Positions 338-42,059 of a stretch of DNA of 44,240 nt are shown piece by piece. The notes under the pieces are model-generated. The model ran no database searches and was not told the origin of the DNA. It saw only the letters and a list, made by a program, of their open reading frames with translations. The position numbers were made by a program, and so were the translations under genes. The DNA is from Verrucomicrobiales bacterium. GTDB lineage: Bacteria > Verrucomicrobiota > Verrucomicrobiia > Verrucomicrobiales > DEV007. The DNA is taken from assembly GCA_030730365.1 (NCBI GenBank), contig JANQVJ010000050.1:7410-51649 (forward strand), in the 5' to 3' direction. Position 1 is the first letter of the stretch. Each line of letters opens with the position of its first letter.

Positions 338-1446
338 CTTCGACCTCTGCGCGAAGTCTGTCGCGCATGACCACCTCTTCGCCCGACGATTCTTCCGCTC
401 CACTGCAGTCCCGGCTCGTTCGTCTGCCCAAGCTCTTCGACGGCATCGCCGAGGAGCTTGTCGCCTGCTTCGGTGCGGTCTCGAGCACGAGACTGGGCCG
501 CGACTACGATCTCATCCGCACCGTGACGCCAGAAAGGGTAGCGGAGTCAGAAGCCTCTCTCTACGTGCGGTGGCAGATCCCGATGGATCACACCTGGCCC
601 TGTCAGCCGCGAAAGATGGAGGGCTTTATCGAAAAGGCGGCGCAAACTCTGCAGCGAAAATTCGCGGACCGCAAACCGCAGGGCATCTTCATCGGGACGC
701 TCCATCCCACCTCGCCCGATCGCTACTTTAAAACCCTTGCCTCGAATTTGCGGGGACGTGTCCTCCAGCTCTTCCCGAATCTCCCTGTCGGAGCCGTGGA
801 GGATCAGGACCCGCTCATCGAGACGCTTTTCTGCCTCGTCGGGAAAGAGGGGCTCTACTGCGGCATGGCAACACCCCGTTCGGCGAACGGCTTTTATCCT
901 GGGGGCAGCAAGTATATCGATCAGGACGCCCCCGATACCATCAGCCGCGCCGGGGCCAAGATCGCCGAGGCCCTGCATTACCTGCGGCTCCATCGTCCCG
1001 CCCTGCCCGAAGGCGCGCAATGGCTGGAACTCGGGGCCTGTCCCGGCGGCATGACGTCGGAGCTCCTCGCGCGCAGGCAGCGCGTCACCGCGATCGACCG
1101 TTCTCCGCTCGATCCCAGACTGAACGGCCGCCCCGGCCTGAAATTTGTCCTCGCCGATGTCTCCGATTTTCCGGTCGGGACGCGAGGGCACTACGATGCC
1201 CTTCTCTGCGACATGAACGGTCCGCCCGAAGACTCGATCGCTCAGGTCATCCGGCTTTCGCCTTCGTTGAAAAAAGGAGGGCTCGTCGTTTTCACCCTGA
1301 AAGTGCCGCGGATTGAGACGGTCGACGGTCCGCTCGCCTGGTATAGTCTCATTCTCAGGACGGCGGAGAAGGCGGGGCTGCGTCTCCTCGCAAAGACGCA
1401 CCTCACTTACAACCGTCACGAGTTCACCCTTTTCTTCGAGACCTGA
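334..1446 (+). CDS. RlmM/FtsJ-like S-adenosylmethionine-dependent RNA 2'-O-methyltransferase
   Basis: A 370-residue protein with a C-terminal Rossmann methyltransferase domain. The SAM-binding motif is LELGACPGGM at residues 231-240. A K-D-K-E type catalytic set is suggested by D293 in LLCDM, K323 in FTLKVP and E363 in RHEFT. The N-terminal half is THUMP-like, and the segment around CGMATPRSANG resembles the same region of RlmM, which methylates C2498 of 23S rRNA. Its length is close to that of Escherichia coli RlmM (about 366 residues). I therefore infer an rRNA 2'-O-methyltransferase, but the exact nucleotide cannot be read from sequence. The ATG at 334 overlaps the upstream stop as ATGA, which favours this start. 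The gene converges on alaS with one base between the stops. Confidence 0.8.
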   Translation: MTSTSARSLSRMTTSSPDDSSAPLQSRLVRLPKLFDGIAEELVACFGAVSSTRLGRDYDLIRTVTPERVAESEASLYVRWQIPMDHTWPCQPRKMEGFIEKAAQTLQRKFADRKPQGIFIGTLHPTSPDRYFKTLASNLRGRVLQLFPNLPVGAVEDQDPLIETLFCLVGKEGLYCGMATPRSANGFYPGGSKYIDQDAPDTISRAGAKIAEALHYLRLHRPALPEGAQWLELGACPGGMTSELLARRQRVTAIDRSPLDPRLNGRPGLKFVLADVSDFPVGTRGHYDALLCDMNGPPEDSIAQVIRLSPSLKKGGLVVFTLKVPRIETVDGPLAWYSLILRTAEKAGLRLLAKTHLTYNRHEFTLFFET

Positions 1447-1447
1447 G

Positions 1448-4276
1448 TTACGCGAGCAATTCCTTCGCCTTCGCGAGGATCGCCTCGGCTTCGGACGCAC
1501 CGCCCGGTGCGGCACCGCGTGCCATTTCGGGTTTGCCGCCGCCCTTGCCTCCCGCGACGGCGAGGGATTCACGGACGATGTCGCCCGCTTTGAAACGGCT
1601 TGCCACATCGGGATGGACGAGCACGCCGAGATGGACCGATCCATCGGCGACCACGGCCATGGCGACCGCTCCGCGGAAATGACGCGACTTTATCGCGTTC
1701 ATTGCCTCCTGGAGCAGTTCGGCCGAGTCCCCGGGGAGCAGTCCCGCCCAGGTCTCGCCTTTGTAGCCGGTGAAAGTCTCCTCGCACCACTGAGAGGCGA
1801 TTCCGGCGGCGGCGCCGGCCGAGGCTTTCCTGACCGATTTTTCCGCCTGGACGGCGGCGGCACGGATCGCGTCACGATGGGCTTCGAATTGTTTGAGGTG
1901 AACGTTCGCACCGGGGAGATCGCTCGAGGAGAGCGATTTTTCGATGATCTTGTAGAGGTTGTCGACCTCCTCGAGCTCGACATAGGATTTACCGAGAGCC
2001 TTCAGTTTTGCGTTAGCCGCGGCGAGCTTTTCCGCGGCATCGGCGAAGTCGCTTTCAATGGCGGTGGCTTCTTCGGCAATGAGCGCGGCGGCGGCGTCTC
2101 CGCAGACCGCCTCGATCCGGCGAATCCCGGCAGCGACGGCGCCCTCACTTTTGATTTTGAAAAATCCGATCTCACCGGTCGAGGCGACGTGAGTCCCGCC
2201 GCAGAGTTCCATCGAGTAACCGTCGAAGGCTCCGCTCTTGCCGCCGATCTGGACGACGCGGACTTTGTCCCCGTATTTGTCCCCGAAGAACTGCATCACT
2301 TCGGGGTGGTTCTTCACCTCGGCATGGGGCACCTCGAGGACAGTGACCTTGTCGTTCGAAAGGATGCAGCCGTTCACCTCGGCCTCGATGCGGTGGAGCT
2401 TGTCGGTGTCGAGCGCGGAAGAGTTGAAGTCAAAGCGGAGCCGGTCAGGAGCGACGAGCGAGCCCTGCTGGGTCGCGTCAGGGTTCACGAGCTGATGGAG
2501 CGCCCAGTGGAAAAGGTGGGTCGCGGTATGGTGCTGTTCGATGCCGCGGCGACGGGTCGTGTCCACCTTGAGCGTTACCGTTGTGGTGTCTTTGTCAGGG
2601 ATCTTTGCGAGCTGGAGCACGGTCGCCTCGCCCACGCCGAGGACGGAGATGACGGGGATGCTTTCGCCGCCTGCGATGAGGACGCCGGTGTCGCCCTGCT
2701 GTCCGCCCTTTTCGATGTAGAAGGGGCTGAGGTCCACGATCGCAAAGATACCGCTGCCGTTGTCGATCCAGGTCACGACTTCAGCCTCGGTCTCATCCTT
2801 TTCATAACCGACGAACTCGGTCTTCACGTTCGTCTCGATCGAGACAGCTTCGATGATGGCGGTGGTGCGGCCTTCCGCTCCGGTGCTCTTGTGGGCATCG
2901 ACGAGACGGGCGACTTCGTCCTGATCGGTCGTGAGGGAGCGCTCGTCGAGGAGGAGCTGGGTCAGGTCGGTGGGAAAGCCGAAGGTCTCCCAGAGTTTCA
3001 CGACGGTGTCGGCGGGGAATTTGGCCCCCTCGGTAACCTTCGCGGCGGCGTCGTCGAACAGCTTCAGTCCGCGGTCGAGGGTGCGGTTGAACTGCTCTTC
3101 CTCGGCCTTGAGGACGGCGGTGATTTTCTCCTGCCGGGTCGCGAGTTCGGGGAAGACGTCGCCGAACTCCGCGACGAGCACGGGGACGAGCTGGTGGAGG
3201 AAAGGGTTAGTGGCGTCGAAGCCGAGGATACGGCCGAAGCGCACCGCGCGTCGCAGGATGTTGCGAATGACGTAGTTGCGACCGCCGTTGCCGGGCTCGA
3301 TCCCGTCGGCGATGGAAAAGCTGACGGTGCGGATGTGGTCACCGATAACGCGGAAAGCGATGTCGATTTGCTCCTGCTCGGTGAGGCTGTGGCGTTTTCC
3401 GCCCTCGGGCACCGTCGAGGTGTAGGTCTTGCCGGTGAGGGCCGAAAGCTTCGCGAAAATCGGGGTGAAGACGTCGGTGTCGTAGTTCGAGGCGAGACGC
3501 GAGAAATCGGTGAACCCTTTCGTGCCTTGGATCGTGGCACAGGCGCGCTCGAAGCCCATCCCCGTGTCGACGTGGCAGGCCGGAAGAGGGCGGAAGGTGC
3601 CGTCCTCGTTCGCATTGAACTGGATGAAGACGAGGTTCCAGATCTCGATGCAGCGGGCGTCGCTGCCGTTGACGAGACTGCCTTTGGTGTCGCCTTCGGG
3701 GGTGAGGTCGATATGGATCTCCGAACAGGGACCGCAGGGGCCGGTCTCGCCCATCATCCAGAAGTTGTCCTTGCGGTTGCCGTTCACGATGTGGATGGCC
3801 GGATCGAGGCCCGCCTTTTTAAAGATCGCCGCCCAGAGATCGTAGGCCTCCTGATCGAACTCGGACGGATCGCCCTCGGACGGAGCATAGACCGTCGCAT
3901 AAAGACGATTCGCGGGGAGACCCCAGCGCTCCGTGAGCAACTCCCAGGCCCAGTTGATCGCCTCGGCCTTGAAGTAGTTGCCGAAGCTCCAGTTTCCCAG
4001 CATCTCGAAGAGAGTGTGGTGGTAAGTGTCGTAGCCGACATCCTCGAGGTCGTTGTGTTTGCCTCCGGCGCGGATGCACTTCTGCGTATCGGCCGCGCGC
4101 GGCGGGTCATAGGGAGCGGCCTCGGTGCCGAGGAAATACGGAATAAACTGGTTCATCCCCGCGTTGGTAAACAACAGGTTGGGGGATGTCGGCATGAGGG
4201 AGGCAGAGGGCACAATGGTGTGCTGTTTTTCTTCGAAAAAATCGAGGAAGGACTGCCGGATTTCGCGTGAGGTCAT
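1448..4276 (-). CDS. alaS: Alanyl-tRNA synthetase
   Basis: A 942-residue class II synthetase that charges tRNA-Ala in the cytoplasm. The order of parts is complete: N-terminal aminoacylation domain (FTNAGMNQF, the DTYHHTLFEMLGNWSFG segment and GTHTDTG-like CHVDTGMGFER), the editing domain with zinc ligands HTATH at 583-587 and CGGTH at 692-696, and a C-terminal C-Ala domain with a Gly-rich GGKGGGKPEMARG stretch. The start MTSREIRQSF is the usual one for AlaS. It lies downstream of lysA on the same strand, separated by 268 bases with several potential hairpins. A very long antisense frame (985 codons) covers the same region and is a codon-bias shadow. Confidence 0.98.
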   Translation of the reverse strand: MTSREIRQSFLDFFEEKQHTIVPSASLMPTSPNLLFTNAGMNQFIPYFLGTEAAPYDPPRAADTQKCIRAGGKHNDLEDVGYDTYHHTLFEMLGNWSFGNYFKAEAINWAWELLTERWGLPANRLYATVYAPSEGDPSEFDQEAYDLWAAIFKKAGLDPAIHIVNGNRKDNFWMMGETGPCGPCSEIHIDLTPEGDTKGSLVNGSDARCIEIWNLVFIQFNANEDGTFRPLPACHVDTGMGFERACATIQGTKGFTDFSRLASNYDTDVFTPIFAKLSALTGKTYTSTVPEGGKRHSLTEQEQIDIAFRVIGDHIRTVSFSIADGIEPGNGGRNYVIRNILRRAVRFGRILGFDATNPFLHQLVPVLVAEFGDVFPELATRQEKITAVLKAEEEQFNRTLDRGLKLFDDAAAKVTEGAKFPADTVVKLWETFGFPTDLTQLLLDERSLTTDQDEVARLVDAHKSTGAEGRTTAIIEAVSIETNVKTEFVGYEKDETEAEVVTWIDNGSGIFAIVDLSPFYIEKGGQQGDTGVLIAGGESIPVISVLGVGEATVLQLAKIPDKDTTTVTLKVDTTRRRGIEQHHTATHLFHWALHQLVNPDATQQGSLVAPDRLRFDFNSSALDTDKLHRIEAEVNGCILSNDKVTVLEVPHAEVKNHPEVMQFFGDKYGDKVRVVQIGGKSGAFDGYSMELCGGTHVASTGEIGFFKIKSEGAVAAGIRRIEAVCGDAAAALIAEEATAIESDFADAAEKLAAANAKLKALGKSYVELEEVDNLYKIIEKSLSSSDLPGANVHLKQFEAHRDAIRAAAVQAEKSVRKASAGAAAGIASQWCEETFTGYKGETWAGLLPGDSAELLQEAMNAIKSRHFRGAVAMAVVADGSVHLGVLVHPDVASRFKAGDIVRESLAVAGGKGGGKPEMARGAAPGGASEAEAILAKAKELLA

Positions 4277-12367: not shown

Positions 12368-13102
12368 ATGACGCCACCGGGAACAGCACGCTCGAAAACG
12401 GCATTTGTCTTAGGGCGACAGGCGCGCGATGGCTTTTCACTGGTGGAAGTCCTCGTGGTATCGGGAGTGATCGGTCTGTTGCTGGCCTTGTCAGTGCCCG
12501 GTCTCGTCGCGACCAGTCCCTCGAGAAAGTCGGCCATTCACGAGGTTTCCGGATTTCTCGAAAACGCACGTTCGCGGGCGATGGCATCGCGGTCGGAGAT
12601 GGTCGTGGCCTTTGCCGACGGCGCTTTTCCCGGTGATGGCGCCTATCGCAGTTACGCGCTTTTTACGCTGGAAGGCGAGGACGACGATCGTGCCGAGGAG
12701 GGCACGCTGAGGCAACTCACGCCATGGAAAAATCTCCCGCCCGGAGTGGTGTTTGGCCTCGGTGAACATTTTGAGGTGCCGGGCGGGACGGCCTTCCGGA
12801 CGCTCTTCGAGGTGCCGGAGCGACGCGACTTCGCGATGCCGTCGGCGACTCCGGGAAGCGATGGAGGCACCTCGCCGCTGCCGTCTCTGCATTTCGGGCC
12901 CGAAGGCGGAGTTCTCTTCCCCGCGTTCTCCGATGCGGACGCGCTGCACCTGGGAGTGATCGAGGGATTTTATTCGCGGGAGCGCGGCGCGGTCGAACTG
13001 ACTGCAACGCGTCCGGGAATCATGGGCACAGGCACTTATGCGAGCGGCGAGTGTCTCGAGATCGGTTTTTACACAGGGCGGTCGCGCATCCTCACTGACT
13101 GA
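12368..13102 (+). CDS. Verru_Chthon cassette protein D-like pseudopilin (GspH-like)
   Basis: A 244-residue protein with a class III prepilin signal: a 22-residue leader ending ARDG, cleaved before FSLVEVLVVSGVIG, with Glu at +5. After the hydrophobic helix comes SGFLENARSRAMASRSEMVV, which resembles the GspH segment following the helix. It should be processed by a prepilin peptidase (none in the window) and inserted in the inner membrane as a pseudopilus subunit. The ATG at 12368 is chosen because the longer frame from 12251 adds 39 residues before the leader. It is the first of four cassette genes with gaps of at most 2 bases. The family name is recalled from TIGRFAM-style cassettes and was not searched. 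Confidence 0.8.
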   Translation: MTPPGTARSKTAFVLGRQARDGFSLVEVLVVSGVIGLLLALSVPGLVATSPSRKSAIHEVSGFLENARSRAMASRSEMVVAFADGAFPGDGAYRSYALFTLEGEDDDRAEEGTLRQLTPWKNLPPGVVFGLGEHFEVPGGTAFRTLFEVPERRDFAMPSATPGSDGGTSPLPSLHFGPEGGVLFPAFSDADALHLGVIEGFYSRERGAVELTATRPGIMGTGTYASGECLEIGFYTGRSRILTD

Positions 13103-13104
13103 CG

Positions 13105-13623
13105 ATGAAAAAGAAACGCCATCGTTTTTCGGGCACTGCTGCTTTTTCTCTGTCCGAGGTCACCATCGCCATGGGCATCGTCGCGGTACTGATGTTGCCT
13201 GCGCTCGCAATGCTGGCGGGCGGTGGATCGATGGAAGCGCTCTCCCGCGATCGCGAAACGGTGAGCCGCATCGCGCGGATGGTGGTATCGAGCGCCCGGG
13301 TTGGCGAGACGGGAGATCACTACCGGATCGACTTTCCCGGGGGAGGCACTTTTCCTGTCGACCTGCCGGGCCGTGGCGGGATGAAAACGGCCTACCTTCT
13401 TTTTGACGAAAAGGGGCTTTTTCTGGGAGAGATCGAACAGGCAGGCTATGAGACGGGCGTTGATCCCGCCGGTGGCGGGTTTCATCTCGTCAGGCTGCAT
13501 TTCTCCGCACACGAAACAAAGGCCGGTCTTTACGAATGGGATCTCTCAGTGGAGCACGCGGCCGCCGCGCCAAGGGAAGTGAGGCATGCGGAATTGTTTC
13601 AAACCCGTCTCACCGACCCATGA
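13105..13623 (+). CDS. Verru_Chthon cassette protein B-like pseudopilin (GspI-like)
   Basis: A 172-residue protein with an N-terminal prepilin motif. A 13-residue basic leader ends GTAA, followed by FSLSEVTIAMGIVAVL with Glu at +5. The residue before the cleavage site is Ala rather than Gly, which prepilin peptidases accept less often. The small size and the second position match GspI, the scaffold of the type II tip complex; this parallel is my inference. It starts 2 bases after the previous stop, and its own stop overlaps the next start as ATGA, so translation is probably coupled. Confidence 0.8.
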   Translation: MKKKRHRFSGTAAFSLSEVTIAMGIVAVLMLPALAMLAGGGSMEALSRDRETVSRIARMVVSSARVGETGDHYRIDFPGGGTFPVDLPGRGGMKTAYLLFDEKGLFLGEIEQAGYETGVDPAGGGFHLVRLHFSAHETKAGLYEWDLSVEHAAAAPREVRHAELFQTRLTDP

Positions 13624-14834
13624 GCACGGTGGGGATCATTACCCTGCCTTCGTTCCGGTCGGTCCGGACTGGCTCCACTCTTGTCGAGTTGCTTGCCTCG
13701 ATGGCGATTCTATCAATCCTCCTGGTAGTCCTCGGATCGACTCTCGAGGTGGCGATGGGACGATTCCGCAGCGGGGCGGAGAAGTCGGAAAAGGAAGCCG
13801 GCGCCCGCCTCATGGCCCAGTGGTTGGAGCGCGACCTTTCCTCAATGGTCGGCTCCCGCCCCGCCCGCCTTCCTCGTCTGCCCAAGGGTACAACCGCGGT
13901 GCAGCGAGCCTTTTTCGAAGGCCGGATCTTTCTCCCGTTTGAGATCAATCGCAAAGTCGGCATCGGCATGACCGAACCGCGCAGTTTTCAAAATGCCTCA
14001 ACCGGCTTTGACTCCATCGCCTTTGCCACGGATCGCGATGGAGGGGGCCTCGCTATCGCCGGTTATTATGTCGCCTATGCGCGTCATTCGCCGCTGAGCG
14101 GTGAGGTATCTGCGGGAATGAAACTCTTCCGGCATTTTCGACGCGGTGGGAGTGTCTCTGGTGACGGCTATGCGGGCGGGCTGATTCTTTATGCTTCGCA
14201 CGAGATCAACGACATTTGGGACGAGTTGAGTCAGGGGGCGGCGCGTCCTCCCGGGCAGGAGAACCTGGCGGCGGTGCGACGCGGACGATTTGAAAACGCG
14301 GACCTTCCTTTTCTCCTCGCGCGGCGTTTCGCCGGACGCACGACGATGTCTCCGGTCGCGGCGACTCAGCCCTGGCCAGCGAATCCGGTCCGTGAATGGC
14401 TGACCGCGCCCCCGCCGACCTATCAGCCGTATCGAGGCACGGCCGATGACTGGACCGATCCCGACAGCCCCGTGCACGATTCGGTCTTTCCCGACGAGGC
14501 GGTCTGCGATCATGTCGTGAAGTTCGAACTGGTGCCGCGTCTTCGTGTCACCCTCGCCGACGGGAGATCCGAACTGATGGATGCCGCTGCCTTGAACGAA
14601 CACCTCGGGCTCGCGGGCGGGGATGAATGGCCCGTCCTCGTGACCCCCGACTTCATCGAGATGACGATCGCGACGATCAATGAAAAGGCGGCCCTCACCC
14701 TGACAAACCCCGAAGACTGGATCATCGATTTCGCGGCGACAGATCCTGGGAGCTGGTCTTCCCGGCGACAGTTCCTTGAGCGCGAGATGCAGACCCGTCA
14801 TTTTCGGATCCCGCTCCCGCCCCGCACGCGATGA
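13620..14834 (+). CDS. Verru_Chthon cassette protein C-like pseudopilin (GspJ-like)
   Basis: A 404-residue protein when started at the ATG at 13620, which overlaps the upstream stop (ATGA). The longer frame from 13536 is rejected because it precedes the leader and overlaps the previous gene. The prepilin signal is an 18-residue leader ending VRTG, then STLVELLASMAILSILL with Glu at +5. The rest is a large globular part with no known motif, including Pro-rich segments. Position and motif match GspJ, although GspJ is about half this size. The gene ends in another ATGA overlap with the next gene. Confidence 0.78.
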   Translation: MSTVGIITLPSFRSVRTGSTLVELLASMAILSILLVVLGSTLEVAMGRFRSGAEKSEKEAGARLMAQWLERDLSSMVGSRPARLPRLPKGTTAVQRAFFEGRIFLPFEINRKVGIGMTEPRSFQNASTGFDSIAFATDRDGGGLAIAGYYVAYARHSPLSGEVSAGMKLFRHFRRGGSVSGDGYAGGLILYASHEINDIWDELSQGAARPPGQENLAAVRRGRFENADLPFLLARRFAGRTTMSPVAATQPWPANPVREWLTAPPPTYQPYRGTADDWTDPDSPVHDSVFPDEAVCDHVVKFELVPRLRVTLADGRSELMDAAALNEHLGLAGGDEWPVLVTPDFIEMTIATINEKAALTLTNPEDWIIDFAATDPGSWSSRRQFLEREMQTRHFRIPLPPRTR

Positions 14835-17800
14835 AGAGGTCCCGCCCAGATCAGCGTTCCGGCGCGGCCCTCATCATGACGCTGATCCTCGTCACGGCGA
14901 TCTCGCTCCTTGTGATCAGCTACTATGCGATCACGCGGCAGGAGGCGACGGTGAGCAGCGCGACCGTCTCGCTGGCTCGCGCCGATCTCGGGGAAAAGGC
15001 GGCCTTCGCCGAGGCGGGGGCGTTGCTGCGCCGACTCACCGCGAATGATCGCTATCTCGTCAGCGTCGTGACACGTCCCGGAGGGGACGGAAAACCGACG
15101 CGCTACACCTACCTCTCTACTCCAGACGGGGACGGGGTGACTCACGCGGCTCTTTTTAGTGGGGGCGGTGAAAGGCGAGGCTCCCTCCCCAATCTCGATT
15201 CGCGCGACACCACAGCGCTCCTTGATGCTCCCGTCGCGCCGCCCGAGGATGTCCTCGAGGGTGAGGCGGCGGAAAAAGCGATCCGGACTTTTCCGCTCAC
15301 GCATCTTACCGGGTCGGGCAACACGGTGGAAGAGAATCGGTATCCCGCGGTCGCTTTTCAAGACCTCGGAGACCCCGGAGATTCCCCATACCGGACCCGC
15401 TACGCCTATTGGATTGAGGATCTCGAAGGCTATCCGAATCTCGATGTCGTCGGGGCGTGGACGGATCACTACCGGTCTGCCGACGGCGAGCTGGCGCGGG
15501 ATCCGATTCGATATGGCTACGGTCCTTTCGATTCGCGGCGCGCCCGGACAGGTCCGAAGGGAGGGCAAACGGGGCGGTATCCGCTCGAAGGGGAACCCGA
15601 TTTGTTTTACCAGTTCCCGACCGTGTTTCGCGGTCAGAGTCTCCTCGATCAGGTCGCGCCGGGACTCTCGACGCGTGAGATCGCCCTCGTGCCGTGGAGA
15701 ACCGCCGCTCTTTCTGCGGCAAAGCATCCCTATGCCGGAGCGCTGCAAAAACTCTCGCGGCGCTATCTTTTTGCGAGCGGTCCGGTCGATCAGGGGTCCG
15801 TCGGCCATCACGAGCCCGGGCGATTCGCGAGCGGGCTCCAGCCCTATCGCCGCCGCCCTCTTATTCCCTTTTCTCACGGCTACGCCGATGAGGGGAAGCC
15901 GCGCTACAACCTCAACACGCTCGTCGCGAATCGCGATCTCGGGCTCGCCGTGATCGTCGAACGCAACCTGCCGAAATTTAAGGAGCGTCGCGGCGGTTTC
16001 CCTGATGACGAGGACTACCTCGCGACGCTCGCGGCCAATGCGATCGACTACGCAGACAGGGATAGCCTGCCTGCTCTGCCAGCGAACACCCTGAATGCCG
16101 GTTCGAGAGTCTTTCGCGGGGTGGATAGCTATTGCCCGGTGAATGAGTTTTTTGTGAAGTTCAAATATGTCGGATACGAACTCGCCGGGAGCCAATACCT
16201 GATCGTCTTCGAGGCGGTGCCCTACGTTGAGCTCTGGAATCCCTCGAACCGCGAGGCGAAGATGGAGCAGATACGCCTGAGGTTCAGTTTTCTCGAGCGG
16301 ATCCGCTTCAGGGCGAACGGCAGCTGGCATGAGATTCTCGAGGCCCATCGCGGGCTCGATGAATCGTTTCCGGACACGGGCGGCCTGACCGTATCGGTTC
16401 CGCCGAATGGTTACAAGGTTCTCAGCTTCGGCAAGATCATGTGGAAAGTCCCTATTCCCCGGGATCCGTCATCGCCCATTGCCTTCCCGGTGATACAGGA
16501 TCTCCGGGGCGTCACGAATGTTTCGGTGCGGGCGAACTACGAATTCTATCTCGGGGCTGATCTCGTCGATACCTGCGGGCGGTTCGATTCAGCTGATCCC
16601 GCGACGGCTGCCCGCCATGGGTTTTTCTTCGCCCGGCGGGCCGGAGTCATCAGTTCGGGACAGTCATTCATGCGGCTAGCGACTCCTAACATGGCCGCAA
16701 AAGCCTACGGATTCAATGCGGGGGACGGTTCCCATCTCGGGGATCCGTGGATGCCCTACTACTCACGGGCGACCGCCGAGGACTTGCAGTATCGGCTGAA
16801 AGGATCGCCGGGCACGCGGAACTACGACCACTCAAAGGTCAATGCGGGACGGCCCGACTGGTTCAAGGATCAGACGAGAGTTCGCGATTGGCCCGACCGT
16901 GGCTACGACAAGGCACACGGCCCCAATTACCCGGCCGATGACACAGAACTGCCCGATACCTTCAATCCTCCATGGACAGATGATGACGGAGCCTTCGCTC
17001 CATGGCGGATCTCGAATCTCGGGCGGTATTTTTCCGTGACCGAGTTGGGGAATCTGCACGATCCCGTGATGTGGACCCCGGGCCCCCCGACGATTCTAAC
17101 GCAGAACGCGCAGCGATTTGAAAATTACCGCAACACCACTCTAAAAAATCTCCCTGCAGGTTCCGTCCCCGGTAAAATGTGGGGCGGCGGCAATACCCTG
17201 CGCATCGGTCGGCCCGAGCATGCCCTCTTCGACCGGCCCGGGATGCGGGCGAGCCAGTGGCTCGATCTTTTTCACACCGGATTTACCGGAACAAATCTCG
17301 CGGCAGAGAGCGGGATCGATCTCCACGCAACCTATGATCCGCGGGATCATCAGCCTCCGGCGGCTGCCTCAGGCCCTCTTGAGTCGGGCGCTCAACCCTA
17401 TGCAGCCCTCTACGATAGCGATCTCCATGCGCAGGGTCAATTCGCCCTCATCGATGGCCATCTTAATGTGAACACGGCGCCGACCGCATTTGAAATCGAG
17501 GCCCTCTTGCGGGGTCCGTTTGTCTCCTCTGACATTCGGCTCGAGGAGGACAGATTCGATACGCCCGTCTACTCCCGCGAGGGTGACACCGGAACCTTGC
17601 AGAGCGGTCTGCGGCCCGAATCTATCCCGATGATCGCGGTGGGCCTGATGAAAGCGCGGCCTTTTTACAGCCCGTCCCACCTCGCTCGCGTCCTCTCGGG
17701 CCTGATCGACCGACACGACGCCCTGCCCGATCATCACAATGACGCCGAGGCCGAGGAGACTTTTGCGCGGCTCCTCAATACGACGACAATGTCGAGCCGC

Positions 17801-17962
17801 CATTTCCGTATCTTCACCAGTGCGGAGATCTATCACCACGAGACCGGCGAGGTCACCGGTCGCAGCCGTCGCGTCCACGAAGTCTTCCTCCGTCCCCTTC
17901 ACGCGGTGGACGGTGAGGTGGAATGCAGCCGTCTCGAACTGATTTCGTCCCGCGATTTATAA
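14831..17962 (+). CDS. Verru_Chthon cassette protein A-like, giant GspK-like protein
   Basis: A 1043-residue protein with N-terminus RSGAALIMTLILVTAISLL. This has the prepilin-like Gly-hydrophobic junction but lacks Glu at +5, just as GspK does among type II minor pseudopilins. GspK is about 320 residues, so this version is roughly three times larger. The extra part holds no domain I recognise. It has many Trp/Tyr-rich segments, an NVNTAPTAFEIEALL segment reminiscent of the GspK helix-hairpin region (NVNTA is typical there), and a conserved-looking end SRHFRIFTSAEIYHHETGE. The ATG at 14831 overlaps the previous stop. It probably caps a pseudopilus or forms a surface tip; substrate and partners are unknown. 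Confidence 0.75.
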   Translation: MKRSRPDQRSGAALIMTLILVTAISLLVISYYAITRQEATVSSATVSLARADLGEKAAFAEAGALLRRLTANDRYLVSVVTRPGGDGKPTRYTYLSTPDGDGVTHAALFSGGGERRGSLPNLDSRDTTALLDAPVAPPEDVLEGEAAEKAIRTFPLTHLTGSGNTVEENRYPAVAFQDLGDPGDSPYRTRYAYWIEDLEGYPNLDVVGAWTDHYRSADGELARDPIRYGYGPFDSRRARTGPKGGQTGRYPLEGEPDLFYQFPTVFRGQSLLDQVAPGLSTREIALVPWRTAALSAAKHPYAGALQKLSRRYLFASGPVDQGSVGHHEPGRFASGLQPYRRRPLIPFSHGYADEGKPRYNLNTLVANRDLGLAVIVERNLPKFKERRGGFPDDEDYLATLAANAIDYADRDSLPALPANTLNAGSRVFRGVDSYCPVNEFFVKFKYVGYELAGSQYLIVFEAVPYVELWNPSNREAKMEQIRLRFSFLERIRFRANGSWHEILEAHRGLDESFPDTGGLTVSVPPNGYKVLSFGKIMWKVPIPRDPSSPIAFPVIQDLRGVTNVSVRANYEFYLGADLVDTCGRFDSADPATAARHGFFFARRAGVISSGQSFMRLATPNMAAKAYGFNAGDGSHLGDPWMPYYSRATAEDLQYRLKGSPGTRNYDHSKVNAGRPDWFKDQTRVRDWPDRGYDKAHGPNYPADDTELPDTFNPPWTDDDGAFAPWRISNLGRYFSVTELGNLHDPVMWTPGPPTILTQNAQRFENYRNTTLKNLPAGSVPGKMWGGGNTLRIGRPEHALFDRPGMRASQWLDLFHTGFTGTNLAAESGIDLHATYDPRDHQPPAAASGPLESGAQPYAALYDSDLHAQGQFALIDGHLNVNTAPTAFEIEALLRGPFVSSDIRLEEDRFDTPVYSREGDTGTLQSGLRPESIPMIAVGLMKARPFYSPSHLARVLSGLIDRHDALPDHHNDAEAEETFARLLNTTTMSSRHFRIFTSAEIYHHETGEVTGRSRRVHEVFLRPLHAVDGEVECSRLELISSRDL

Positions 17963-17965
17963 ACG

Positions 17966-18664
17966 ATGAAAACGCATTTTCTTTTTCTTTCGATTGTCCT
18001 GACAGGAACATATCACGTCCTCGCCCGGGAGGCTCCCGAAGCGGCCACGGCCGGTTTTTTGAATGTCGTAAATCTCGTCGGGCTGAAGAGTCACACCTTC
18101 ATCGAGCTCGGCACTTTTGCGCTGAACGGAGGTGAGCCGGTAAGGCCGGGAGGCAGCTCGGGCGTTCTCGCGATCAAGCCGGGGAGTTACTCTTTCACTC
18201 TTTCCAACGCGGCTGCAAAGCCCGCCGAAGTTACCGGTGATATCACGATGGAGGCAGACAGCACTGTGGCCATCATCTGCTACGATGAAGTGAAGGTCTA
18301 TCGCGACGGCAGCGAAGAGGTGAAATTGCGTTTCAACGTTCTCGTGGAGTCCGACGCGGTCGGTCCGCGGCTCAGTCTCATCTCCCTGCTGCGTGAGCCG
18401 AGCGTCGGCCTCGAAGTCTCGGGTGATCGGGTGAGCCTGGTTCCGCGTCAGGCGCACAAGCGCAAGGTTGCCCTTGAGGATGAGATTCGGATCGAGTACG
18501 GGGGCAAAACGCTCGCCGAATTCGCCATCGAACGACCTCTCCATTACCTCGGTTTTCTTTTTGAAAATATCGAGACCGGGGAAGTCGAACTTTCCCTCAT
18601 CGAAAACGAAAAGCTCGAGTATCAACCGCCCCTCGAAGCTGAGGAAGGTGATGCCGACGAGTGA
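17966..18664 (+). CDS. Secreted protein of unknown function, fifth gene of the cassette operon
   Basis: A 232-residue protein with a Sec signal peptide (MKTHFLFLSIVLTGTYHVLA, probable cut after VLA). The mature part looks beta-rich, with FIELGTFALNGGEPV and a segment on strand-forming residues, and ends in an acidic tail EAEEGDADE. I do not recognise the family. The gene starts 3 bases after the cassette A stop, so it is very probably in the same transcript and may be a periplasmic partner of the pseudopilins. Its last 43 bases overlap the 3' end of folP on the other strand. Confidence 0.75.
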   Translation: MKTHFLFLSIVLTGTYHVLAREAPEAATAGFLNVVNLVGLKSHTFIELGTFALNGGEPVRPGGSSGVLAIKPGSYSFTLSNAAAKPAEVTGDITMEADSTVAIICYDEVKVYRDGSEEVKLRFNVLVESDAVGPRLSLISLLREPSVGLEVSGDRVSLVPRQAHKRKVALEDEIRIEYGGKTLAEFAIERPLHYLGFLFENIETGEVELSLIENEKLEYQPPLEAEEGDADE

Positions 18665-19527
18665 GAATAGCCGTGACTGAAATCGCCCCGGATCGCGGCG
18701 ATGACGCGCACGCTGTCGGCGACCGCTTTGACGTGGTGGACGCGGAAGATGTTCGCCCGCGCGACGAGGCCGCGGACGAGGCAGGCAATCGTCCCGGCAT
18801 CGCGCTCGGCCGGGGAAGTGATGCCGAGGACCTCACCGATGACCGTCTTGCGCGAGATGGGGAGGAGGAGGGGCAGGTCGTGGTGATGGAGTCGTTCGAA
18901 CTCACGGTAGACCGCGAGATTGTCGGCGCATTGCTTCGCGAAATCGATCCCCGGGTCGAGGATGATCTGGTCGTCGCTCAGCCCGATCGCTCGGGCGCGG
19001 GCGAGGCGGTCGTCGAAGAAGGTCTCCATCGCCTCCCAGATGTCGTGGTAGTGCTGACTGGTGTGAGGGACCTTCGGCTCGCCCACCGTATGCATGATGA
19101 GGAGCGCGGCATTGAACTCGAAACAGAGCCGAGCATTCGTGTCATCGACGAGTCCGCCGATGTCGTTGATGATGTCGACTCGCCCGGTTTTGAGGACTGC
19201 CTCGACGATCTCGGGTCTCCAGGTGTTGATTGAGAGGAGCGGCGGCCAGATCTGATAGCCGTCGCGCGGTCCCGTCTCGGCGCAGAGTGTCTCGAAGCCG
19301 TCAATGAAGGGGAGGAGGCGCCCGATTTCTTCCGAAATGCCGATCGCGTTGCGGTTCGTGCGCGCACTCTCGGCCCCGACGTCGATGATGTCGGCCCCGT
19401 CTTCGGCCATCTTGAGGGCCTGCCCGAGAGCTTTCCCGATGTCGAGAGTGCCGTCTCCGGAGAAGGAATCGTCGTTGATATTGACGATGCCCATGACCCG
19501 GGGAAATGCTCTGAGAATCTCCTTCAT
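18622..19527 (-). CDS. folP: Divergent dihydropteroate synthase
   Basis: A 301-residue TIM-barrel protein when started at the ATG at 19527 (MKEILRAFPRVMGIVNINDDSFS). The longer frame to 19638 has no family counterpart. DHPS joins para-aminobenzoate to dihydropterin pyrophosphate in folate synthesis. Visible motifs are NINDDSFS, DVGAESAR (usually DxGGESTRPG), LSINTW (usually SVDT), NDIGG, IMHTVGEP, DPGIDFAK, ISRKTVIG and RVHHV (usually RVHD). Several pterin-pocket residues differ, notably Asn for Asp in SVDT. It may be a divergent true FolP or a non-folate paralogue. It follows tyrS by 107 bases and overlaps the convergent secreted-protein gene by 43 bases. Confidence 0.82.
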   Translation of the reverse strand: MKEILRAFPRVMGIVNINDDSFSGDGTLDIGKALGQALKMAEDGADIIDVGAESARTNRNAIGISEEIGRLLPFIDGFETLCAETGPRDGYQIWPPLLSINTWRPEIVEAVLKTGRVDIINDIGGLVDDTNARLCFEFNAALLIMHTVGEPKVPHTSQHYHDIWEAMETFFDDRLARARAIGLSDDQIILDPGIDFAKQCADNLAVYREFERLHHHDLPLLLPISRKTVIGEVLGITSPAERDAGTIACLVRGLVARANIFRVHHVKAVADSVRVIAAIRGDFSHGYSHSSASPSSASRGG

Positions 19528-19634
19528 CTCTAATCGGTCCGAAATGGATCCTTTCCGATGATTGGATGAAAAAGAGGAGGAGGCAATGTTAAAAGCGATT
19601 TTTAAAAGCTCGACAAGGCCGGTGGGATGTGATC

Positions 19635-20807
19635 TCACGCAATCCGCACGCTGCGTTTCTTATCCACTTTCAAAACCTGGCCTCTTGCCCAGGCAGGCTC
19701 TGCTCTGGGGTCGGTGAGTTTTTCGCCGTCGAGCTGCACGCTGCCCTGCTGGATGAGGCGGCGCACGTCGGAGCCGGACTTCGGGCTGCTAAAAATGGTT
19801 TCGTAGACTTCGGTGACGACTCCGACGAGGTCGCGTCGCTCACCGATCGCGAAATCGGGAAGGTCCGCAGCGTCGAGGTCTTTGCGGCTGAACATGGCCT
19901 CCCAGTTGTCGCGGGCGGCGGCGGCTTCGTCTGTCGTGTAGTAGCGGGTCACGAGGGCAGCGGCGAGGGATTTTTTCGCCTCCATCGGGTGGATCGTGGA
20001 GTCGATTTCCTCACCCATGAGGAGGAGCGAGTAGCGGGCCATGAGCTCGTCGGAGATGCTCATGAGCTTGCCGAACATCTCGCGGGGCGCTTCGGAGATG
20101 CCGACGTAGTTGTTGAGGCTCTTGCTCATTTTCTGAACACCGTCGAGGCCTTCGAGGATGGGCAGGCACATCACGACCTGGGGCTCCATCCCTTCGGTCT
20201 TCTGCATGTCGCGTCCGACGAGGATGTTAAAGAGCTGATCGGTTCCGCCGAGCTCGACGTCGGCACGGACTTCGACCGAGTCCCAGCCCTGCACGATGGG
20301 GTACTGGATCTCGTGGAGGCGGACTTCCTGATCGTTCGCGATGCGGTTTTTGAAATCCTCGCGCTGGAGCATCTGCTGCATCGTGACGCGGGCATTGAGC
20401 TGGATCACGTCGGAGAAGGACATTTTGTTGAACCACTCGCCGTTGAAGACGACTTCGGTTTTCTCTCTGTCGAGGATGCGGAAGGCCTGCTCGGTGTAGG
20501 TCTCCGCATTGGAGAGAATGGCCTCGCGGGAGAGGGGCGGGCGGGTTTTTGAGCGTCCCGTGGGATCGCCGATCTGCGCGGTGAAGTCGCCGATGATGAG
20601 GACGGCCTGGTGGCCGAGCTCCTGGAACTGGCGCAGCTTTTCGAGGACGACGCTGTGGCCGAGATGGAGGTCGGGCGAGGTCGGGTCGACGCCGAGCTTG
20701 GCCCGCAGAGGCGTGCCGCGCTCGAGTTTTTTCAGCAGCTCTTTCTCGCTGATGATCTGGGCGGTTCCACGGGTGAGGAGCTGGAGCTGTTCGGCGGGTG
20801 ATTTCAT
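19635..20807 (-). CDS. tyrS: Tyrosyl-tRNA synthetase
   Basis: A 390-residue class I synthetase that charges tRNA-Tyr. The HIGH-type motif is HLGH at 48-51 and the KMSKS motif is at 226-230. Between them are the tyrosine-binding segment ELGGTDQLFN and the GWDSVEVRADVE region. The C-terminus is an S4 RNA-binding domain (SGSDVRRLIQQGSVQLDGEKL). The start MKSPAEQLQLL at 20807 is chosen because the longer open frame (to 21494) runs antisense-like through the regulator gene with low-complexity Arg/Pro text. It lies 104 bases after the AraC-type gene on the same strand and before folP. Confidence 0.97.
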   Translation of the reverse strand: MKSPAEQLQLLTRGTAQIISEKELLKKLERGTPLRAKLGVDPTSPDLHLGHSVVLEKLRQFQELGHQAVLIIGDFTAQIGDPTGRSKTRPPLSREAILSNAETYTEQAFRILDREKTEVVFNGEWFNKMSFSDVIQLNARVTMQQMLQREDFKNRIANDQEVRLHEIQYPIVQGWDSVEVRADVELGGTDQLFNILVGRDMQKTEGMEPQVVMCLPILEGLDGVQKMSKSLNNYVGISEAPREMFGKLMSISDELMARYSLLLMGEEIDSTIHPMEAKKSLAAALVTRYYTTDEAAAARDNWEAMFSRKDLDAADLPDFAIGERRDLVGVVTEVYETIFSSPKSGSDVRRLIQQGSVQLDGEKLTDPRAEPAWARGQVLKVDKKRSVRIA

Positions 20808-37200: not shown

Positions 37201-38880
37201 TTGTACACGAACGAACCTTACCTTCTGGAACTCTTGCAGGAAGCCCAACGGGTAACCCCAGCGGCGCTCGAAGATGCAAAACACAAGAAAAAGTCGCAGG
37301 AGACGACGATCCAGGCGCTCCTCTCGCTGAACCTTCTCACCGACGAGATGATCGCGGAAACTCTCGCGGAAAATGCGGGGATGGACTACGTCGATCTGAA
37401 GCGTCTCGACTTGAATCCGGCCGTCGCCTTGCGTGTTCCCGCCGATGTCGCGGTGCGCTTTCGCATCGTTCCTGTCGCCGAGGGGCATGGTTCCCTCGTC
37501 ATCGCGGTAACCGATCCGCTCGATTTCGATGCGCTCGATTCCGTCCGCCACGTGCTCTCAGTCGAGCCAGAGTTCGTTGTCGCCTCTGACAGTGCGATCA
37601 AGCAGCGCCAGCTCGACTTTTACGCCTCGCAGCTCGATGCCGAGCAGATCAGTAAGCTCGATGCCGACGCCATCGCCGTGTCCGAAGGTGCCGGTGGTGA
37701 GGGTGGCGACGCGCCCATCATCAAGATGGTTTATCAGATCCTCCAGGAGGCCTATCAGAACCGCGCCTCGGACATTCACATTGAACCAACCGAGAAGGAG
37801 ATGCGGGTCCGTTACCGCATCGATGGTTCGCTCCACAAAGTGCAGAGCCACCCGCTCCGTCTTCTCCCCTCCATCGTCAGTCGCATCAAGATTATGACCG
37901 GGACGATGGCGATTTCTGAAAAGCGTCTCCCGCAGGATGGCCGTATCCAGGCGAAATTCGGAGCCGGTGACCTCGATCTTCGCGTCTCGACAGTGCCGAC
38001 GAGTTGCGGAGAGAGCATCGTCATGCGTATTCTCGACAAGAGTTCGCTCACGATCGGTCTGCCTCAGCTGGGATTCTTCAGTGATGACCAGGCCACCTTT
38101 GAGGAACTCATTCGTCTCCCTGACGGCATCATTCTCGTGACCGGCCCGACCGGTTCCGGGAAAACGACGACGCTCTACGCCTGCCTCAACTCGATTAACA
38201 AGCCCGACCGCAAGATCATCACGGTTGAGGACCCGGTGGAATACCTACTTTCCGGAATCAACCAGGTTCAGGTGAAGGAGTCCATCGGGATGTCTTTCGC
38301 GGCAGCGCTGCGAGCCATCCTCCGACAGGCGCCGAACATCATCATGATCGGGGAGATTCGGGATCTTGAGACCGCTTCCATCGCGATCAATGCGAGTCTT
38401 ACCGGTCACCTCGTCTTCAGTACGCTTCACACGAACGACGCGCCCTCAGCAGTGGCCCGTCTCGCCGATATCGGGGTGAAAAAATTCCTCATCGCGAGTG
38501 CGGTGAGATCCATCATGGCCCAGCGTCTCGTGCGGTTCATCTGCAAGGACTGCGCCCAGCCCGGTGAGATCTCGCTGAAAGACATCCGTGCCCTGCGTCT
38601 CACCGAGGAGCAGTTGTCTAAGGCCGAGATCCGCCAGGGGGCCGGTTGCCGCACCTGCCGCATGACCGGTTACAAGGGGCGAAAAGGTTGCTTCGAGATT
38701 TTCAACATCGACGAAGAGGTGCGGCTGCTCATCAATGGCGATGAGTCCACCAGCGGCTTGCGCAAGCGCGCGCGTGAGCTGGGCATGCGGACTCTCCGCG
38801 AAGACGGCGTTCGCAAAGTCCTCTCGGGCATGACGACCGCTTCCGAAGTGATTCGGGTGACCATGGCGGATAACGACTGA
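37201..38880 (+). CDS. gspE: GspE/PilB-family assembly ATPase, first of two
   Basis: A 559-residue ATPase that powers pseudopilus or pilus assembly at the inner membrane. It has an N-terminal T2SSE_N-type domain (about 1-150), then the ATPase core: Walker A TGPTGSGKT with K321, the Asp box, Walker B IMIGEIRD, the His box HLVFSTLHTNDAPSA and two CxxC pairs of the zinc-binding insert (CKDC and CRTC). All catalytic motifs are intact. The start is TTG at 37201; no ATG precedes the domain. It is followed by a second ATPase gene after 39 bases. Which machine (type II or type IV) is served cannot be decided from the ATPase alone. Confidence 0.93.
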   Translation: MYTNEPYLLELLQEAQRVTPAALEDAKHKKKSQETTIQALLSLNLLTDEMIAETLAENAGMDYVDLKRLDLNPAVALRVPADVAVRFRIVPVAEGHGSLVIAVTDPLDFDALDSVRHVLSVEPEFVVASDSAIKQRQLDFYASQLDAEQISKLDADAIAVSEGAGGEGGDAPIIKMVYQILQEAYQNRASDIHIEPTEKEMRVRYRIDGSLHKVQSHPLRLLPSIVSRIKIMTGTMAISEKRLPQDGRIQAKFGAGDLDLRVSTVPTSCGESIVMRILDKSSLTIGLPQLGFFSDDQATFEELIRLPDGIILVTGPTGSGKTTTLYACLNSINKPDRKIITVEDPVEYLLSGINQVQVKESIGMSFAAALRAILRQAPNIIMIGEIRDLETASIAINASLTGHLVFSTLHTNDAPSAVARLADIGVKKFLIASAVRSIMAQRLVRFICKDCAQPGEISLKDIRALRLTEEQLSKAEIRQGAGCRTCRMTGYKGRKGCFEIFNIDEEVRLLINGDESTSGLRKRARELGMRTLREDGVRKVLSGMTTASEVIRVTMADND

Positions 38881-38919
38881 TAACGACAGGGTCGCGAATT
38901 TTAATATTTTTGAGCTTAT

Positions 38920-40617: not shown

Positions 40618-40708
40618 TGCGAAGACTGCCGTTTTTTCCATCGACAGCAATGACGGGGAAAAGCTAATCTCAGGAAAATTTCTAACGAAAACACGATAAG
40701 AAAATACT

Positions 40709-41977
40709 ATGGCAAATTTCGAATACATTGCCTTGGATGCGAAGGGGTCGGAAACGACGGGGTCGATCAAGGCAAGCGATGAGGCGGACGCGATCAGTCA
40801 GCTTCGCAAGAGCGGACTTTATCCCACCCAGGTGGTGGCTGCGGGCAAAGGAGGGGTCTCCAGTGCCTCGAAGAAGCGGGCCAAGGCTAGCGCCAAGGCG
40901 AAAAAGGGGATGGCGACGGGCGGTCGCGTCAACGGCAAGATCCTCATGATTTTCACCCGCCAGCTCGCCACCCTCGTGGACGCCGGTCTCCCTCTGCTGC
41001 GCGGTCTTTCCGTGCTCGGTAAACAGGAAAAGAACCGTGTCATGGCCGGGACGATCAATCACCTCGCGGATTCTGTCGCAGGCGGTTCGACCTTCTCGGA
41101 AAGTCTCGGTCAGCACCCGAAAATCTTTGATAAACTCTACGTCAACATGGTCAAGGCCGGTGAGCTCGGCGGTGTCCTCGAACTCGTTCTCGTCCGTCTC
41201 GCCGAGTATCAGGAAAAGGCCCAGAAGCTGAAAAACCGCATCGTTGCGGCGATGGTTTATCCCATCATCGTTATCGTCATTGCGGTGGCCATCCTTATCT
41301 TCCTGATGGCGGTCATCGTGCCTCGGTTCGAGAAGATTTTCGCCGAGATGCTCGGTGACAAACCGCTCCCGGGGATCACCCAGTTCGTCATCGGGATCAG
41401 TCGCTTTGTGCAGGACTCGTGGCTTATCATCGCCATCGCCCTCGGCGTTCTTTATGCCGGTTGGAAAGTCTTCGCAATGACTAAGGTCGGCCGTGTCGCG
41501 ATCGACCGGATCAAACTCTTCATGCCCGTCTTCGGTCCGGTGCAGCTCAAGGGCGGCATCTCCCGCTTTACGCGGACACTCGGCACGCTCGTGACGAGCG
41601 GGGTGCCCATTCTCCAGGCGCTCAATATCACGCGCGACACCGCCGGTAACGTCGTCATCGCGAATGCTATTGAGAAAGTCCACGAAGCGGTCCGCGAAGG
41701 GGAATCCGTCGTCGCTCCACTCGAGGCAAGCCGTATTTTCCCGCCCATGGTCATCAGTATGGTGGACGTCGGTGAAGAGACCGGACAGCTCCCCGACATG
41801 CTTCTGAAGATCGCCGACGTCTACGACGACGAGGTCGACAACGCGGTCGACGCAATGACCTCGATGATCGAGCCCATCATGATCGTCTTCCTCGCCGCCA
41901 TCGTGGGAACGATCGTTATCGCGCTCTTCATGCCCATGATCACAATCATCACCGAGATGAATAACCAGGCTGGTTAA
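40709..41977 (+). CDS. gspF: GspF/PilC inner-membrane platform protein
   Basis: A 422-residue protein with a short N-terminal domain (FEYIALDAKGSETTGSI, typical of GspF/PilC), a basic Lys/Ala-rich linker, and two T2SSF domains. Each holds a cytosolic helical part (FTRQLATLVDAGLPLLRGL and its counterpart FTRTLGTLVTSGVPILQAL). Membrane segments lie near MVYPIIVIVIAVAILIF and the C-terminal IMIVFLAAIVGTIVIALF. It anchors the ATPases and passes pseudopilin subunits into the fibre. It sits between the second ATPase and gspG. Confidence 0.95.
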   Translation: MANFEYIALDAKGSETTGSIKASDEADAISQLRKSGLYPTQVVAAGKGGVSSASKKRAKASAKAKKGMATGGRVNGKILMIFTRQLATLVDAGLPLLRGLSVLGKQEKNRVMAGTINHLADSVAGGSTFSESLGQHPKIFDKLYVNMVKAGELGGVLELVLVRLAEYQEKAQKLKNRIVAAMVYPIIVIVIAVAILIFLMAVIVPRFEKIFAEMLGDKPLPGITQFVIGISRFVQDSWLIIAIALGVLYAGWKVFAMTKVGRVAIDRIKLFMPVFGPVQLKGGISRFTRTLGTLVTSGVPILQALNITRDTAGNVVIANAIEKVHEAVREGESVVAPLEASRIFPPMVISMVDVGEETGQLPDMLLKIADVYDDEVDNAVDAMTSMIEPIMIVFLAAIVGTIVIALFMPMITIITEMNNQAG

Positions 41978-41990
41978 AAAGGCGAAAAAG

Positions 41991-42051
41991 GGGCAAATCG
42001 GGAGATTCGGTGTTTACATTGTATTGACGATTTGCCCGCCTCTCTGATAAA
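41991..42051 (+). promoter_or_regulatory. 10-bp inverted repeat and candidate promoter upstream of gspG
   Basis: GGGCAAATCG at 41991-42000 and CGATTTGCCC at 42028-42037 are a perfect 10-bp inverted repeat with a 27-base spacer. TTGACG at 42024-42029 and GATAAA at 42046-42051 are spaced by 16 bases and resemble a sigma-70 promoter; the right arm overlaps it. The start codon follows at 42060, leaving almost no leader. It may allow gspG to be expressed separately from gspF. Confidence 0.5.
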
Positions 42052-42059
42052 GTCAGGAC

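What the first reader, a model, noticed from the sequence alone, without database searches (positions are those of the whole stretch)
12368..18664. Pseudopilin cassette mirrors GspH-I-J-K order with a giant K-like subunit
Four genes with gaps of at most 2 bases, two of the three junctions being ATGA overlaps, encode three prepilin-signal proteins with Glu+5 (244, 172 and 404 residues) and a fourth of 1043 residues without it. Type II minor pseudopilins H-I-J-K show the same order and pattern, and K alone lacks Glu+5. The cassette families are known in Verrucomicrobia (my recollection) but their function is not. Reading them as an enlarged secretion or surface tip complex is new to me and testable.
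Basis: partly seen in the sequence, partly recalled or inferred. Interest (0 to 1): 0.72.

Follow-up and report, generated by a model that had tools for sequence, protein, structure and literature searches.

The report
Giant-capped pilus-tip gene set
Five adjacent genes in an uncultured Verrucomicrobiales bacterium appear to encode an oversized version of the four-part tip of bacterial secretion filaments and pili, plus a small secreted partner usually found beside it; it is a new variant of a gene set that databases name but do not explain.

Summary
D-B-C-A (244, 172, 404, 1043 aa) lie at 12368-17962 with a 2-base gap and two ATGA overlaps; D, B and C have Glu+5 and A does not. The order recurs in 7 of 7 complete named relatives. 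A fifth gene, E (17966-18664, 232 aa, secreted), belongs to the set: of genus genomes seen in two searches, 13 of 13 with A have E and 9 of 10 without A lack it.

By profile comparison the four are divergent Verru_Chthon cassette proteins, each closest to its namesake, but all miss the NCBIfam cut-offs, and the order is D-B-C-A where this genome's classic cassette is A-B-C-D. The K-likeness of A is real beyond the shared helix: it has a block matching the first GspK domain and, more weakly, a later NxNTAP-type site in the same order, with about 420 residues between. D resembles GspH mainly at the N-terminus. Domain-level similarity of B to GspI and C to GspJ was not detected. The genome separately holds a T2SS-like F-G-H-I-J-K set, the classic cassette and a PilT-equipped pilus.

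The parts
12368..13102 (+). Cassette D, 244 aa, GspH/FimU-like prepilin with Glu+5
   Evidence: best profile match Verru_Chthon D 161; best T2SS match GspH 74
13105..13623 (+). Cassette B, 172 aa, prepilin with Glu+5 and Ala before the cleavage site
   Evidence: best profile match Verru_Chthon B 74
13620..14834 (+). Cassette C, 404 aa, large prepilin with Glu+5
   Evidence: best profile match Verru_Chthon C 105; best T2SS match GspJ 51
14831..17962 (+). Cassette A, 1043 aa, giant GspK-like prepilin without Glu+5
14861..15052 (+). A residues 11-74: hydrophobic helix block aligned to the GspK N-terminus
15899..16171 (+). A residues 357-447: NLNTL...AIDYADRD block aligned to GspK (where Pfam T2SSK_1st lies in the genome's own GspK)
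16172..17443 (+). A residues 448-871: extra region relative to GspK, no Pfam match
17453..17515 (+). A residues 875-895: GHLNVNTAPTAFEIEALLRG, colinear with GspK's second NxNxAP-type site (weak by itself)
17966..18664 (+). Fifth gene E, 232 aa, Sec-type signal peptide by eye; faint PEGA/DUF4397 similarity in relatives; co-conserved with A

Best explanation
D-B-C-A is a minor-pilin (pseudopilin) tip set of the H-I-J-K kind, related to it through the Verru_Chthon families. Proposed mechanism: the four are inserted in the inner membrane by their class III signal peptides, processed by prepilin peptidase, and assemble into a staggered complex with A, which lacks Glu+5, as the ultimate cap. That complex primes and tops a type IV-like filament. 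A has kept GspK landmarks but carries a very large extra region that would stand out at the tip. E is exported by Sec and is held by, or pushed out with, the A cap, as PilY1 is by PilX or a substrate is by GspK. Since the T2SS-like system in this genome has its own H-I-J-K, the cassette is an additional, dedicated tip, most likely for the PilT-equipped type IV pilus. Shown: gene order, signals, relationships to the named families, A-GspK similarity outside the helix, co-conservation of E. Inferred: assembly, tip position, E as partner or cargo, which machine it uses.
For: Anatomy and conserved order. Profile matrix: D, B, C and A each match Verru_Chthon D, B, C and A best; A's best T2SS partner is K, D's is H. 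Helix-free A-GspK signal above 60 of 60 shuffles in two alignments, while A-H and A-I are at chance (39 and 40 of 60 shuffles reach them) and reversed profiles give A at most 24. 10 of 10 A members hit NCBIfam GspK and 9 of 10 hit Verru_Chthon_A at E up to 1, best 5.8e-8 and 4.7e-6. E follows A in 14 of 14 unnamed loci that reach past A, in 12 of 15 distant A loci and in 13 of 13 genus genomes with A. Separate T2SS-like F-G-H-I-J-K, GspD-like secretin, Amuc_1098-1101-like pilus locus and two PilT-family ATPases. GspK caps the I-J-K complex, and PilX like GspK lacks Glu5 (passages of PMC7248040, and PMC7541494).
Against: All four miss the curated cut-offs of the named families, though the order's own GspK proteins also miss the NCBIfam GspK cut-off (0 of 57 genomes over it). 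B-I and C-J cores are not clearly above shuffles (2 and 7 of 60); B's core is closer to D of the same cassette (25.1) than to Verru_Chthon B (20.9). A's core also exceeds its shuffles against GspJ at a short stretch (25.0, max 18.4). The NxNTAP site alone is not significant: P 0.078 and 0.059 (combined set), and with the window-type set it aligned to GspK's first NLN site instead (P 0.21). No structure or contact prediction could be made. No filament motor is in the cassette; PilB-PilB-PilC-pilin genes are about 19 kb away. E has no PilY1 domain hit.
Confidence: 0.6

Rival explanations
1. The cassette is an alternative tip of the type II secretion pseudopilus: it replaces H-I-J-K on that system to select a special substrate, E being the substrate.
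For: A matches GspK better than any other T2SS subunit tested. GspK is proposed to interact with T2SS substrates (passage of PMC7541494). E has a signal peptide (by eye), is single copy in this genome and is tied to A.
Against: The T2SS-like set of this genome has its own G-H-I-J-K behind GspF, so a second set is not needed, and the cassette is not linked to it.
Confidence: 0.2
2. Only the leader and helix are pilin-like: the proteins use prepilin peptidase for membrane processing and their large domains do something unrelated in the periplasm.
For: The library hits of D, B, C and A cover mainly the N-terminus; B and C cores are not detectably like GspI and GspJ.
Against: The A-GspK block outside the helix, cores that match the Verru_Chthon namesakes, and the conserved order with A last of the four and without Glu+5.
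Confidence: 0.12
3. A surface or matrix-export role not tied to a classical pilus: a pseudopilus that helps to export polymer, as proposed for cyanobacterial Hps pseudopilins.
For: The HpsC model hits the B and C proteins of the C71 cassette weakly (E 0.0043 and 0.047); hps loci combine several pseudopilins with glycosyltransferases (passages of PMC4284469).
Against: The direct neighbours are hflK and hflC and a folP-like gene, no glycosyltransferase. No HpsA model among the families listed for the A members.
Confidence: 0.08

Closest known systems
Verru_Chthon cassette proteins A-D (NCBIfam TIGR02600, TIGR02598, TIGR02599, TIGR02596)
   Same: Same four-protein make-up; each window protein's best profile match is its namesake (D 161, B 74, C 105, A 107), and the cores match above shuffles.
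   Different: Scores far below curated cut-offs (D 21.1/70, B 24.4/51.4, C 20/256.5, A 12.2/332.3 bits). Order D-B-C-A, not A-B-C-D as on this genome's C71. A is 1043 aa against 1540 on C71. Has E. There is a continuum: of 7 further giant A proteins tested, the 3 from A-B-C-D loci score 832-1818 bits, the 3 from D-B-C-A loci 158, 159 and 414 (cut-off 332.3), and one B-C-A locus 132.
T2SS minor pseudopilins GspH-I-J-K
   Same: Gene order, last gene without Glu+5, A shares a GspK block outside the helix.
   Different: A is about 3.5 times the local GspK (median 297 aa); B and C domains not detectably GspI/GspJ; not in a gsp operon; fifth gene E.
T4aP FimU-PilV-PilW-PilX-PilY1 clusters (M. xanthus has three)
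   Same: Four minor pilins plus a fifth exported protein; PilX lacks Glu5; several sets are thought to serve one machine (passages of PMC7541494). A has a weak PilX_N hit (16.3 bits, cut-off 25.5).
   Different: E is 232 aa with no PilY1 domain hit; A carries a GspK-type block, while the GspK insertion is said to be absent from P. aeruginosa PilX (passage of PMC7248040).
Modular pilins (S. sanguinis PilB type)
   Same: A bulky region carried on a pilin module, likely tip-exposed (passages of PMC8179133).
   Different: In A the extra mass lies between GspK-like blocks, not after a short linker. That survey started from the N-terminal motif IPR012902; A has no N_methyl hit (that the two are the same motif is recalled).

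Membership tests
Verru_Chthon cassette (TIGR02596/98/99/600) | Each protein scores over its curated cut-off | tested here: not met
   D 21.1/70, B 24.4/51.4, C 20/256.5, A 12.2/332.3 bits
Verru_Chthon cassette (TIGR02596/98/99/600) | Profile-level homology of each protein to its namesake, beyond the helix | tested here: met
   cores D 88.3, A 43.5, C 33.6, B 20.9; shuffles reaching them 0 of 60, 0 of 58, 0 of 59, 0 of 60
Verru_Chthon cassette (TIGR02596/98/99/600) | Gene order A-B-C-D as in the C71 cassette | tested here: not met
   Window is D-B-C-A. Of 20 further regions, 6 are A-B-C-D, 3 D-B-C-A, 11 other or unresolved
T2SS minor pseudopilins H-I-J-K | Class III signal; Glu+5 in H, I, J and not in K | tested here: met
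T2SS minor pseudopilins H-I-J-K | GspK model over cut-off, or Pfam T2SSK_1st, in A | tested here: not met
   14 of 130 bits, no T2SSK_1st hit. The genome's own GspK has T2SSK_1st at 56.3 bits but also misses the NCBIfam cut-off (84.1 of 130)
T2SS minor pseudopilins H-I-J-K | GspK-type sequence outside the helix in A | tested here: met
   35.3 vs shuffled max 24.7, 0 of 60; distant A 35.5 vs 23.1, 0 of 60
T2SS minor pseudopilins H-I-J-K | B and C domains related to GspI and GspJ | tested here: inconclusive
   B-I 2 of 60, C-J 7 of 60 shuffles reach the score
T2SS minor pseudopilins H-I-J-K | Linked to gsp machinery | tested here: not met
   Neighbours hflK/hflC and a folP-like gene; the F-G-H-I-J-K set is on another contig
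T2SS minor pseudopilins H-I-J-K | I-J-K type trimer and pseudopilin folds | not testable with these tools
   structure prediction switched off
T4aP FimU-PilV-PilW-PilX-PilY1 | PilX_N over cut-off in A | tested here: not met
   16.3 bits, cut-off 25.5
T4aP FimU-PilV-PilW-PilX-PilY1 | Fifth gene has a PilY1/PilC domain | tested here: not met
   no such hit for E or its 9 aligned relatives

The most novel reading that the evidence does not exclude
D-B-C-A-E is a distinct tip module of Verrucomicrobiales filaments: a GspK-type cap enlarged to about 1000 residues that carries its own binding surface, with an obligate small secreted partner E in the place that PilY1 or a T2SS substrate takes elsewhere. 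Genomes with several such cassettes would swap tips on shared filament machines, which would explain the large number of GspK-like and giant A proteins per genome (up to 19 GspK-model matches in one genome).
Probability: 0.3. Interest if true: 0.65.

Novelty: new variant of a known kind. Interest (0 to 1): 0.42.

Why it matters
The Verru_Chthon families have names but, as far as I could find, no function. Tying their giant A-type protein to GspK by sequence outside the helix, and finding a closely accompanying secreted gene in one branch, turns them into a testable tip-complex hypothesis. If right, these bacteria build filament tips with a far larger K-type subunit than the GspK of their own T2SS, and the tip rather than the filament would be what diversifies.

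Tried and rejected
Solved-structure searches with A alone and with the A and E profiles gave nothing useful: none; three weak hits, best E 0.081 to the helix of a pilin; two hits at E 0.38 or worse. Literature: 'Verru_Chthon' and TIGR02596/98/99/600 are in 0 papers of the held open-licence library; the lists hold related pilus and secretion papers among others, and no listed title is about these cassettes. Passages only were seen of PMC13274419, PMC12487129, PMC7541494, PMC8179133, PMC7248040, PMC4284469 and PMC6211770. PilY1 identity of E: rejected, no domain hit. Direct B-I and C-J correspondence: not supported at domain level. A link with the number of extension ATPases in the genus was looked for: 29 of 29 genomes have T2SSE-family ATPases, so it says nothing.

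Rows dropped: the GspK set used 19 of 30 loci. The T2SS sets used 14 of the 20 regions plus L064; 6 were left out because the operon was not cleanly called, and 3 of the 14 gave only I, J and K. The comparison set called Verru_Chthon here is C71 plus giant-A loci picked by their GspK-like start; only C71 (all four proteins) and 7 further A proteins were scored against NCBIfam, of which 4 of 7 are over the A cut-off. Two A sequences of that set end at the edge of the fetched stretch (L140, L146). In L136 and L145 the C gene was not flagged by the motif and was read as the ORF between B and A. The script stopped after 4 pairs; other pairs ran, where 58 and 59 of 60 shuffles finished for two pairs.
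Full report
OBSERVATION. D-B are 2 bases apart; B-C and C-A overlap by ATGA. D, B and C have a prepilin leader with Glu+5; A has a leader but no Glu+5. The set is flanked by hflK/hflC on the other strand and, downstream, by a minus-strand ORF at 18622-19638 that I take for folP from recalled motifs.

CONSERVATION. A scan of named genomes gave 11 loci, all titled as Verrucomicrobiales, Verrucomicrobiaceae or Akkermansiaceae MAGs. In the 7 complete ones (L053-L059) the order D-B-C-A-E is kept, with 4-base overlaps at B-C and C-A in 7 of 7. Six of these are the same A sequence as an unnamed locus. Of the other 4, L060 and L063 are cut by contig ends but show A then E, and L061 and L062 are distant. 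In 189 genomes of the order, 53 have a match to A at E up to 0.001, many of them only to the N-terminus; 29 of 189 are at E up to 1e-30 (my count). In 288 genomes of the phylum, 47 match the A profile at E up to 1e-5; the 9 below 1e-50 all lie in this order (my count).

WHAT THE PROTEINS ARE. NCBIfam names them weakly as Verru_Chthon cassette D, B, C and A, all below cut-off. I built alignments of the window type (16 A, 8 B, 18 C, 8 D), of Verru_Chthon-like proteins (22 A, 14 B, 11 C, 11 D) and of local T2SS-like pseudopilins (15 K, 15 J, 15 I, 12 H, 11 G) from the same order. In an all-against-all hhalign matrix each window protein is closest to its Verru_Chthon namesake (D 161, B 74, C 105, A 107). 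Among T2SS subunits D is closest to H (74, next G 50), A to K (51, next J 40), C to J (51, next H 45) and B to J (43; I only 24). With the first 35 residues removed, the namesake matches stay above all shuffles (D 88.3, A 43.5, C 33.6, B 20.9). D-H is 18.6 (0 of 60, next to the helix), C-J 15.6 (7 of 60), B-I 13.7 (2 of 60). B's core is also above shuffles against D of its own cassette, at 25.1 (0 of 60).

A AND GSPK. A versus GspK without the helix scores 35.3 against a shuffled maximum of 24.7 (0 of 60), and the distant A set 35.5 against 23.1 (0 of 60), both at the same place. A-H and A-I are at chance (39 and 40 of 60); A-J exceeds its shuffles at a short stretch (25.0, max 18.4). The Verru_Chthon-like A set against GspK gives 25.2 (0 of 60), only next to the helix. 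The block in A, residues about 357-447, reads NLNTL...AIDYADRD and aligns to the GspK region that Pfam calls T2SSK_1st in this genome's own GspK. A later GHLNVNTAP site at 875 aligns in the same order to GspK's NxAP site, but is not significant alone (P 0.078; 0.059 with the combined set), and with the window-type set it aligned to the first NLN site instead (P 0.21). Between the two lie some 420 residues with no Pfam match. The C-terminal part of A (about 864-1015 of the mature protein) matches that of the Verru_Chthon-like A set (P 0.0012). So A is best read as a GspK-type subunit with a very large extra region. No curated GspK cut-off is met, but the local GspK proteins miss the NCBIfam one too (0 of 57 genomes over it).

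E IS PART OF IT. E has one match in this genome. Of genus genomes present in both searches, 13 of 13 with A (E-value up to 1e-30) have E and 9 of 10 without it lack E. The exception, G104, shows part of D running into part of E, with B, C and A missing (L150). E follows A in 14 of 14 unnamed loci that reach past A. An E profile finds a homologue beside A in 12 of 15 distant A loci and nothing significant in the 20 Verru_Chthon-like regions. E and its relatives give only faint DUF4397 and PEGA hits (3 of 10 members for DUF4397); a small beta-sandwich is my inference.

MACHINES IN THE GENOME. By below-cut-off NCBIfam hits plus Pfam T2SSK_1st: GspF, H, I, J, K on C39, with a prepilin in the G position; a GspD-like secretin on C55; an Amuc_1098-1101-like pilus locus on C18 (1098 and 1099 over cut-off, 1100 and 1101 just below); a second Amuc_1098-type secretin on C56; two PilT-family ATPases on C40 over cut-off; prepilin peptidase on C75; and in the window PilB-like, PilB-like, PilC/GspF-like and a pilin at 37201-42644. 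A classic A-B-C-D cassette, four of four over cut-off, is on C71. So this genome has three H-I-J-K-like sets.

A CONTINUUM. Of 7 further giant A proteins scored against TIGR02600 (cut-off 332.3), the three from A-B-C-D loci have 832-1818 bits, the three from D-B-C-A loci 158, 159 and 414, and one B-C-A locus 132. D-B-C-A cassettes thus form a graded, partly unnamed branch, with the window's A (12.2 bits) at its far end.

MECHANISM. In ETEC the GspI-J-K complex has GspK as cap with an inserted domain (passage of PMC7248040). In M. xanthus three clusters of four minor pilins plus PilY1 are thought to work with a single pilus machine, PilX lacks Glu5 as GspK does, and PilY1 is suggested to be an analogue of T2SS substrates (passages of PMC7541494). 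By analogy D-B-C-A would form a priming and capping complex, A the outermost subunit, and E the exported partner. I favour a pilus over the T2SS since the T2SS-like set has its own H-I-J-K; this choice is inference.

NOVELTY. The kind is known by name (NCBIfam), without a paper in the searched library. New here: the D-B-C-A-E branch, its companion gene E, and evidence that A is GspK-like outside the helix. I rate it a new variant of a known kind.

Noticed in passing
L150 (G104:C9), about 1107-1911, minus strand: A remnant of the cassette: part of D runs into part of E, with B, C and A missing; it could be a deletion or an assembly artefact.
   Followed up: partly
window 37201-42644: Tandem PilB-like ATPases, a PilC/GspF-like gene and a GspG-like pilin; ATPase pairs with similar spacing appear in several other genomes of the genus.
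   Followed up: partly
G000:C71, L065:3067-4026: A QrcA-like multihaem cytochrome gene (below cut-off) lies just downstream of the classic Verru_Chthon A-B-C-D cassette.
   Followed up: no
genus g16 of family f2: 12 of 13 sampled genomes of this small-genome genus have no GspK match and the other a weak one, while the other 44 of 44 sampled genomes have one; no g16 genome is among the 47 with an A match.
   Followed up: no
loci L131, L142, L148: Verru_Chthon-like A proteins reach about 1640 mature residues, larger than the 860-residue extreme named for modular pilins in a passage of PMC8179133.
   Followed up: no
G308, G434, G228, G339, G239: In other lineages of the phylum, frames of 845-945 residues match the A profile only at the GspK-like block (about 373-497), so shorter relatives may exist there.
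   Followed up: no
PMC13274419 (passage): Another verrucomicrobial genome is reported to hold 67 homologues of one PulG-like pseudopilin, and a pseudopilin is among its genes over-expressed on alginate; pseudopilin expansion may be common in the phylum.
   Followed up: no
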